Positions 6,501 to 9,500 of a DNA stretch of 64,000 bases are shown here, in pieces. A program made the translations under genes and the position numbers. Positions within the stretch are counted from its first letter, which is position 1. Every line of letters starts with the position of its first letter. The notes under the pieces are model-generated. The model was given only the letters and a program-made list of their open reading frames with translations. It was not told the origin of the DNA and ran no database searches. This stretch comes from Dromaius novaehollandiae (Eukaryota > Chordata > Aves > Casuariiformes > Dromaiidae), in NCBI RefSeq assembly GCF_036370855.1, contig NC_088112.1:13012469-13076468 (forward strand). Direction: 5' to 3'.

Positions 6501-9500
6501 GCTGCATCCTCACCCTGAATGACTGGGTACCTATTTACAGGTATTTTCATCATTTCCTGGAGATAGCTTTCAGAGCCGGGCTCAAACTCCTGCTTAGGGA
6601 AATATGGACAGATGCCTTAACTTCGTGGAGGGGGGAAATAATGAGATGGTTGAATACTGTCCAATCACTGGAGAGACTGCTTAGGCCTGCAGCTCTGCAA
6701 AGGAGATTTATCATGCTATTCCTGAGAGTCTTCTGAGTTTTCCCTCGTTCAGCTTTGCTAATCTGACTGAATCTTTGCCTCAGTTTAAATCAAGCCTTTG
6801 CCATAATGTGCAGAGTCTGGTCGTCTGGATGCATCTAAACAGATTTGTTGTTCATTGCAAGGTGCTCTGGGCCATCAGAGAATTAGCCAGGTGAAATATC
6901 TTCCATTGCATGGAATAACCTTTTCCTTTCCAGCTGCTTTTCCATTTGCGCTTCTCCAGCATTTGCTGTGGTCTCAGTCAGTTGGGTAGCACTCCACACC
7001 CTCAGATGTCAATAAGAAAAGGCCAACTACACCTCCTACAACATCTGCTTACTGCCTTCTGATTAAATTTCTAATGGATTGGTCAGGAATTTGAAAATGA
7101 ACTGAAAATGAAAATGAAAAAAAGTGAAAATGAACTATCTCTTCATTTAAACCATTTATGAAAGCCCCCACTGTGAATTCCTGCTGACAGCATTGCAAAT
7201 TCTCCACTTAAACCGGTCTGAGAAGAGGAGCATGTGATAATAGGACAATGAATTTCCATTATCTTCTGAGAATTTGGGGCCTGGATTTTTGTAGCTGGAT
7301 GAAGCTGGAGCTTCATACTTAACAGCAGAACCATAGGTAGCTCTTGTTTGAGTTTTGTTTGCAGCTGAAAGCTTAGTCAAGCTTGAGGTATGTTTGGTGT
7401 GCTTAGAATTTATTTCCCATCAAAATCCCTCGGAGATGTAAAGGGAGAGTGTAGCCACGCTGTACTGCAAACAGCCATTGCCTGTGTTTTTCTGTTCGTT
7501 GAGAAGCTTTAAGACATGTTGTTAGCAAGCCCACTGCCAAAGTAACATCAGAGTGTGTGCGGAAAGATGCCACATCTCTGGTCGTCCAGGCGCCAAAGCA
7601 GCCTACGGAGTGATGCTGCTCTCTCTGAGGCGCCCCACAGACCCTCATGCCATTTTGGCAGCAGGAACCTCAAATACTAACTTGCTGTTTATTTATCCCT
7701 CCCTCCTCTTGGAGGACTAGCATGGGAGGCAATAAGTTCTGTTCAGAAATACGCTTCTCTCTCTTTCTTCTAAGTAGACCCTTTCCTCTTGCAGCTGTTG
7801 CCAGTCCTGGAAATCCATGTCACAGCACTGAACGCCATCTAGCAATGATCAACACGGTATCAGCAAGTCTAGGGCTGCAGAGCACTCTACAGGGATGATT
7901 GATTGCCCTAGCATAAAAACCCTTGTGATAGTTTTCAGTCACTTCTAGATGTGAAATGACCCTGCATCCAGTTTTTCACCTTGCTTTAACAGCCTGACAC
8001 TCTTTGTAGCTTCGGAGACACAGGATGACATCTCGTAGTCCCTCGTGTTGCTCTACAGCCCAAGGCGCTCTCTGCCGTATTTCAACCATCTTTTGTTTTC
8101 TTTTCCAGCAGCTGCAGGTGGTTCCTTTATTCGGCGATATGCAGATAGAACTGGCCAGATACATTAAGACCAGTGCTCACTATGAGGAGAACAAATCCAA
8201 GTGAGTGCCTGCCGTAATGTCTCTTGGCTTCTGTGTGTGTCCTGAAAGGCTTGGGAGTTGCAACTCTTGCTCTCCGGTGTGCGTGAGGTCCGTGCGCGGG
8301 TACCTGTGTGTGTCCCTGTGGGTAGGTGTGAATCCCTCTGAGCAGGCCTGCCTCACCGTACAGTCACTTTTCTGTGCACGTACATACGTACATGTCCCTG
8401 CATGGGAAGCTGTCGTCGCCAGCCCGTGCGTGCGTGTGTGTGCAGTTGGATCTGAGCAGACGTGGCGATGTAGCCGTACCTGCGCAGGCACGGGGGCATG
8501 CGTGCCTGTACGTGCGCTGCCTGGCGCGAGGGGCTTGGCACGTGGCGAGGCACGGCAGCGGGAAGGCATGCGGATGCCGTGGCTCGTGCATGCCTGGGCA
8601 GTTTTGAGCATCCAGCTGAGTGCTTGCGGTGGGCGCACGCTCCAGGGCCAAGGTGTGTGAGTGTGAGCAGTGTGTCCCTGCTCTGGAGAGATTTTAATCC
8701 ACATTTTTGATCTGAGGGACAAAATCCTCCAGAGCATGAACACAGTGCTGGATCTATCTGTGCAGCAACCAGGCTGTCTTGTCTAGCTCTGACACTTCCC
8801 AGGCAGGAAGGTTTCAAGAAGAAAGGCAGCGGGAATTCAAGCTGAACTGGCGGTCAGATGCGTTGGAAGTAAATGAATACTGTGTGAGAAAGGCAGGAAT
8901 GGAGTCTTTAATTCAGTAGTGGTGTAGGTGTGCAAGGTGGTGCTCTACAATCTGGATTCCTAGTCGGTTTGTTGCTCCTGTCAAAAGAATTTGCAGGTGT
9001 TGATTCAGATCATACCTCTCATGTATGAAACCCCACTTGTCTTTGTAGTTTTGCATAATTGTCAATTATTGCTAGAAGAATTGATGTCAGATCTGGATAT
9101 TCTTGGAACAGCATTTGCAACTGCACAGGACACATAAGCAAAGCCTGAGCTGCGGCTGGTGTAGTCACAGCCTAGCGTTCACCAGTGAGCGAAAATGCAC
9201 CTGTAGGACCACATCACGGGATAGTCAGTTTTCTCTGTCATTTCAGAAAAGCAGTCTGTCAGCTGTTTCTTCATCAGGATAGCAAATAATATCCTATCTC
9301 ATCTTTGCACTCCTGTTTGCTCCTCCCCTTTTGCCCTGGAGGATCCTCCTTTTCTGCTCGCTGAGTGGCTCACCCAGGAACAGCCCTCGCCTGCCCTCAT
9401 GCCAGCTGGTTGAAAAGTACCAATTAATTTTTCATGAGAATATTTGAAAATAACATGGCAAAACTTCCCAAGCAAAAAGTTTTCAATTAAAATATTCCAC

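What the first reader, a model, noticed from the sequence alone, without database searches (positions are those of the whole stretch)
8153..8229. Colinear exon-intron hairpin at the CYFIP2 K320E RNA-editing site
Lys320 of CYFIP2 is a known A-to-I recoding site. The exon around A8166 folds onto the first 29 bases of the next intron with about 23 of 28 positions paired, one bulge and a 20-base loop, all in one register. This is a compact editing substrate readable directly from genomic sequence, and it implies that editing happens before splicing.
Basis: partly seen in the sequence, partly recalled or inferred. Interest (0 to 1): 0.78.

Follow-up and report, generated by a model that had tools for sequence, protein, structure and literature searches.

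The report
CYFIP2 editing hairpin burying splice site
In a probably avian genome, the end of a CYFIP2 exon is predicted to fold back onto the start of the next intron, placing a known RNA-editing site in double-stranded RNA and burying the splice site; this looks like the bird version of a known editing substrate, not a new kind of system.

Summary
The hairpin is there as a prediction: exon 8153-8180 (23 of 28 bases paired) folds onto the first 29 intron bases, and A8166 (Lys320) pairs with U8215, p 0.93, in all seven contexts folded. It extends to about 8131-8245. Shuffles: 3-4 of 1000; rank 1 of 26 donors of the gene. CYFIP1 in the same genome has 20 identical bases around the A but no such hairpin (site paired 0.00-0.20). 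Added here: the helix holds the 5' splice site, the costliest of 26 to open, and a 117-nt stem lies 111 nt downstream, near in size and place to the 116-nt 'editing inducer element' published for mammalian Cyfip2. Against: a stricter complementary-sequence test is weak (41 of 1000; within 1 kb 276 of 754 other exonic adenosines do as well); no other species could be aligned, so covariation is untested; no RNA data. K320E editing is already published in human, mouse and chicken. Verdict: interpretation supported; new member of a known kind.

The parts
8109..8200 (+). CYFIP2 coding exon (92 nt, 30 whole codons plus two bases) holding codon 320
   Evidence: tblastn with recalled CYFIP2, junctions by translation; its 30 residues equal residues 301-330 of the PDB CYFIP1 chain 3p8c_A
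8166..8166 (+). adenosine of AAG Lys320, the known K320E A-to-I site; pairs U8215, p 0.93
   Evidence: site known from PMC4053846, PMC4449034 (passages)
8153..8180 (+). exon arm of the apical hairpin, 23 of 28 bases paired
8181..8200 (+). 20-nt loop, with a possible 3-bp mini-stem 8186-8188/8196-8198
8201..8229 (+). intron arm (editing complementary sequence) of the apical hairpin
8201..8206 (+). 5' splice site GTGAGT, inside the helix; opening -3..+6 costs 11.07 kcal/mol, rank 1 of 26 donors
8131..8245 (+). whole extended exon-intron hairpin, 43 bp with the mini-stem, -40.0 kcal/mol
8277..8393 (+). candidate editing inducer element: unbranched intronic stem, 117 nt, 41 bp, 111 nt downstream of A8166
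   Evidence: compared with PMC5654063 Table 1

Best explanation
This is the CYFIP2 K320E editing substrate of a bird-like genome. In the nascent pre-mRNA the exon around A8166 pairs with the first 45 or so bases of the intron (editing complementary sequence). ADAR2 binds this duplex, probably helped by the 117-nt stem just downstream, and deaminates A8166, changing Lys320 to Glu. Because the second arm is intronic and encloses the 5' splice site, editing must precede splicing, and the hairpin itself probably delays U1 binding and so gives ADAR2 time. Shown here: gene, codon, predicted fold, its departure from shuffles, its absence at the CYFIP1 paralogue, the predicted cost of opening the donor. 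Inferred: editing in this species, the enzyme, the role of the downstream stem, the delay of splicing.
For: Same pair at the site in all seven contexts; 3-4 of 1000 shuffles; first of 26 donors; 20 identical bases around the A in CYFIP1 without the hairpin. Of 11 base differences between the two exons in the last 70 bases, 7 fall in paired positions of the CYFIP2 fold: 4 would break a pair in CYFIP1, 3 would not (structure taken from CYFIP2, so biased). Swapping in the CYFIP1 intron changes MFE from -40.8 to -18.6; the CYFIP1 exon with the CYFIP2 intron gives -32.1. The A8166-U8215 pair can form once 30 nt of intron are made. Literature: K320E in chicken, mainly in brain and rising over time; edited primarily by ADAR2 in mouse and human, and ADAR2 knock-out in mouse accumbens lowers it from 60-70% to about 20%; complementary regions predicted for conserved mammalian sites; downstream stem of mammalian Cyfip2.
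Against: No RNA reads and no other species aligned, so no covariation. The +-15 nt complementary-sequence test is weak. About 1% of windows of the gene reach its z. In spliced mRNA the site is unpaired in a 564-nt context (p 0.01) but paired in a 315-nt one (p 0.78), so pairing within exons is not excluded. CYFIP1 has a -23.4 partner within 1 kb against -26.4 for CYFIP2.
Confidence: 0.85

Rival explanations
1. The site is edited, but the real duplex uses another partner (a distant intronic or exonic element), and this fold is a near-chance local structure.
For: Within 1000 nt, 276 of 754 adenosines of other exons have an equally strong 31-mer partner; a mouse screen listed Cyfip2 as stem predicted but not passing its conservation rule (PMC2831006, table passage); exonic pairing in one of two mRNA contexts.
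Against: The partner at the intron start is the strongest of the windows tried within 2500 nt of the site, the fold is the same in all seven contexts, and the paralogue lacks it.
Confidence: 0.1
2. The hairpin is mainly a splicing regulator that lowers use of a weak 5' splice site; editing is a by-product.
For: Costliest donor of 26 to open, 11.07 kcal/mol against -6.7 for U1; CYFIP1 7.5-8.1 against -11.8. Cyfip2 splicing drops in Adarb1 knock-out mice (PMC10984384).
Against: Editing modelled as inosine leaves donor opening unchanged, 11.07 and 11.06; the site and its brain and age pattern are shared by chicken and mammals in the literature.
Confidence: 0.1
3. Chance: an intron start that happens to pair with a conserved exon, and no editing in this species.
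For: 3-4 of 1000 shuffles and about 1% of gene windows reach it.
Against: It lies exactly at a published editing site, edited in chicken.
Confidence: 0.05

Closest known systems
Mammalian and chicken CYFIP2 K320E editing substrate (ADAR2 target)
   Same: same gene, codon and adenosine; complementary regions listed for conserved sites (PMC4053846) and a downstream 116-nt, 47-bp stem reported for mammals (PMC5654063)
   Different: here the stem is 117 nt, 41 bp, 111 instead of 138 nt away; sequence homology to the mammalian elements could not be tested
GRIA2 R/G editing hairpin
   Same: the exon near its 5' splice site pairs with a complementary site in the next intron, which may hinder U1 (PMC4761006, passages)
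   Different: there the edited A is at position -2 of the exon; here it is at -35, and the donor lies near the loop
FLNA/FLNB Q/R site
   Same: ADAR2 recoding site coupled to splicing of the next intron (PMC10984384, sections 8 and 10)
   Different: edited base at -2; loss of ADAR2 raises splicing efficiency there, but lowers it for Cyfip2

Membership tests
Site-selective ADAR recoding substrate with intronic ECS | edited A lies in a stable duplex | tested here: met
   p 0.93 in seven of seven contexts; 3-4 of 1000 shuffles
Site-selective ADAR recoding substrate with intronic ECS | partner strand is intronic | tested here: met
   8201-8229 (to 8245), junction
Site-selective ADAR recoding substrate with intronic ECS | complementary sequence stands out by hybridisation against shuffles (a detection rule like that of PMC6724681, P 0.001; not a definition) | tested here: not met
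   41 of 1000 with a 31-mer within 100 nt; own version with duplexfold, not RNAplex, and a smaller range
Site-selective ADAR recoding substrate with intronic ECS | structure kept by evolution (conservation, compensatory changes) | not testable with these tools
   own genome has no relatives held; one degenerate pattern gave 0 matches in viral contigs and genome contigs; metagenome scans capped at 0
Site-selective ADAR recoding substrate with intronic ECS | A-to-G in cDNA, lost without ADAR2 | not testable with these tools
   no RNA data; known in chicken and mammals from papers
Editing inducer element | separate stable stem near the edited stem | tested here: met
   8277-8393, z -3.26, 1 of 1000, ends chosen after folding; second longest unbranched stem among the starts of 26 introns; a neighbouring grid window has z -1.98
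Editing inducer element | raises editing when present | not testable with these tools
   needs a reporter
CYFIP2 (not CYFIP1) | sequence closer to CYFIP2 and CYFIP2 gene neighbours | tested here: met
   23 of 27 matches 91.7-100% identical to recalled human CYFIP2, the other 4 run past exon ends; last exon differs clearly from the PDB CYFIP1 chain; fn3 and NIPA genes beside it (that these neighbours mark CYFIP2 is recalled)

The most novel reading that the evidence does not exclude
The CYFIP2 hairpin is a built-in timer: it locks a weak 5' splice site (11.07 kcal/mol to open against -6.7 from U1, the least favourable balance of 26 donors in the gene), so that the intron cannot leave before ADAR2 has engaged the helix; ADAR2 binding or remodelling rather than the inosine itself then frees the donor, which would explain why Cyfip2 splicing falls in Adarb1-null mice and why edited Cyfip2 is enriched in mRNA over pre-mRNA.
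Probability: 0.2. Interest if true: 0.6.

Novelty: new member of a known kind. Interest (0 to 1): 0.36.

Why it matters
It gives a compact, directly testable bird substrate for a brain editing event shared with mammals, together with an in-genome comparison (CYFIP1: same 20 bases and same 30 residues, no such hairpin) and a concrete hypothesis of how the hairpin couples editing to splicing.

Tried and rejected
The fold of 8100-8260 as a whole is not significant, so the claim rests on the local hairpin. I tested whether inosine itself opens the splice site: it does not in the model; replacing the A by G changes MFE from -40.8 to -41.2. A GRIA R/G control was planned: one locus, taken as GRIA1 (recalled), could be read, but two other AMPA-type loci held stretches that read N, which the tool says marks withheld stretches, so the control was dropped. 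Printed oligos around the site were sought in papers: 0 found. Rfam: 0 matches at gathering score in the window. Levanon 2005, Riedmann 2008 and Licht 2016 are not held, so I could not see whether they drew this same hairpin; supplementary files (for instance Pinto Table S11, Daniel Figure S5) were not opened, the cap being 0.

Rows handled by hand: of 26 junctions one (exon 4 to 5) was misassigned and its donor was set by hand to 3436. The 783 adenosines leave out the two exons at that junction and the first and last exons seen. One search used an exon start 15 nt off; one search repeats it with the right start and gives opposite results in two contexts. My note says 21 identical bases with CYFIP1; the right number is 20.

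Full report
What is there. The window lies in a 1.468-Gb genome of 271 contigs (C15:13012469-13076468), by size and gene order probably a bird (inference; the species was not identified). A recalled human CYFIP2 protein of 1253 residues finds 27 exon cores from 403 to 43172, residues 93-1253 (three further matches under 24 bits are chance). Of 26 junctions, 25 were placed by translation and one by hand. One exon was scanned and matches Pfam FragX_IP; an ORF at 21148-21861 on the minus strand matches fn3 and one at 60227-60895 the NIPA magnesium transporter family; the names FNDC9 and NIPAL4 are recalled. The last exon differs clearly from the PDB CYFIP1 chain. Exon 8109-8200 carries Lys320 as AAG at 8166-8168.

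The hairpin. A8166 pairs with U8215 (p 0.93) beside a 4x3 internal loop in all seven contexts from 77 to 801 nt. The stem continues down to 8131/8245, 43 bp with a 3-bp mini-stem in the loop, -40.0 kcal/mol. Dinucleotide shuffles: 8153-8229 z -3.48, 4 of 1000; 8145-8235 z -3.48, 3 of 1000; 8131-8245 z -3.40, 3 of 1000. The longer stretch 8100-8260 gives only z -1.05, 32 of 200.

Controls within the gene. Of 26 donors this one has the most exon-intron pairs in both sizes tried (23 and 39) and the lowest z. With the exon fixed, 12 of 2000 shuffled introns and 0 of 6106 other 46-nt gene segments pair as strongly. Of 3000 synonymous recodings, 66 equal the 70:46 duplex, 32 the MFE and 36 the 48:29 duplex. 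Against this, the +-15 nt hybridisation test is modest: 41 of 1000 shuffled 31-mers; rank 24 of 783 exonic adenosines within 100 nt, with 22 of 754 from other exons as strong; and 276 of 754 as strong within 1000 nt. In a scan of 1439 windows of 117 nt on the + strand of 1-43200 (40 shuffles each), 13 entries reach the z of the window at 8131 (itself listed twice) and 87 its MFE; for 8277 these are 9 and 11, itself counted. So the folding of one sequence gives a signal of about 1% or better at a place chosen beforehand, not proof.

A paralogue as control. The same genome gives one other match, the CYFIP1 exon at C1:146040358 (called CYFIP1 because it is the second copy with the shared peptide). 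Its 30 whole codons give the same residues, 76 of 92 bases agree, and bases 8157-8176, around the A, are identical. In four sizes its cross-junction pairs are 9, 9, 25 and 24 against 23, 28, 39 and 49; z -1.75, 0.24, -0.36 and -1.06 against -2.83, -3.36, -3.87 and -2.36; and the site is paired with p 0.00, 0.08, 0.20 and 0.07 against 0.93. Its donor G is also predicted paired (0.98-1.00), in another structure. That CYFIP1 is not edited there is recalled, not tested.

The splice site. The donor CAA|GTGAGT lies in the apical helix. Opening -3..+6 costs 11.07 kcal/mol, rank 1 of 26 in 240-nt contexts, and its U1 duplex is -6.7, fourth weakest of 26. The CYFIP1 donor costs 7.5-8.1 with U1 at -11.8. 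Only this donor and the one at 12533 cost more to open than U1 gives back (the two lists). Modelled inosine at 8166 does not change the cost (11.06). In mouse, Cyfip2 splicing falls without ADAR2 and mRNA is more edited than pre-mRNA (PMC10984384, sections 8 and 10 and passages); the authors suggest that editing promotes splicing. The geometry here suggests binding rather than the base change as the cause; this is inference. In spliced RNA the site is unpaired in a 564-nt context (p 0.01) but paired in a 315-nt one (p 0.78), so the folds do not settle whether mRNA could still be edited.

The downstream stem. In the three folds that contain it (313, 493 and 801 nt) 8277-8393 forms an unbranched stem of 117 nt and 41 bp, 111 nt from A8166. 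Of 1000 shuffles 1 reaches it, but the ends were chosen after folding, and a grid window at 8281 has z only -1.98. It is the second longest found in a 300-nt stretch near the start of each of 26 introns. PMC5654063 Table 1 (section 9 read) gives for mammalian Cyfip2 a downstream inducer element of 116 nt, 47 bp, at 138 nt. The agreement is suggestive, but the stretch holds GT runs and ACGTACAT twice, and homology could not be tested.

What is known. K320E is published in human and mouse (PMC3391646, passages; PMC4053846, table passage) and chicken, mainly in brain and rising over time (PMC4449034, passages), which also notes that ray-finned fishes encode Glu. The edited peptide YI[K>E]TSAHYEENK is listed from brain (PMC12295206, table passage); the unedited peptide is shared by CYFIP1. 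A list of predicted complementary regions for conserved mammalian sites exists (PMC4053846, passages; the table itself not seen). In nine paper searches and the passages read I saw no description of the bird hairpin or of its buried donor, but key papers are not held, so I do not claim that it is unpublished.

Verdict. Observation confirmed, interpretation supported, new member of a known kind. The added value is the CYFIP1 comparison, the buried donor and the candidate inducer stem.

Noticed in passing
window 2549: CYFIP2 intron with a GC donor (CAG|GCAGGT) by translation-guided junction placing.
   Followed up: no
window 21841-21957: Lowest local folding z of the 1439 windows scanned (-5.94, 40 shuffles), overlapping the 5' end of the minus-strand fn3 gene; no inverted repeat of 14 nt or more was reported in that stretch.
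   Followed up: partly
window 11420-11573: Longest unbranched stem among the starts of 26 introns (48 bp, 154 nt), after the donor at 11254.
   Followed up: no
window 8666-8749: Inverted repeat with 23-nt arms, 87% complementary; window at 8671 has z -3.84: a further stable stem in the same intron.
   Followed up: no
window 12533: The only other donor of 26 whose predicted opening cost exceeds its U1 duplex energy (8.65 against -6.1).
   Followed up: no
window 8109-8200: The peptide [12 protein letters not shown], used in proteomics as evidence for CYFIP2 recoding, is identical in CYFIP1 (PDB chain), so by itself it does not tell the paralogues apart.
   Followed up: partly
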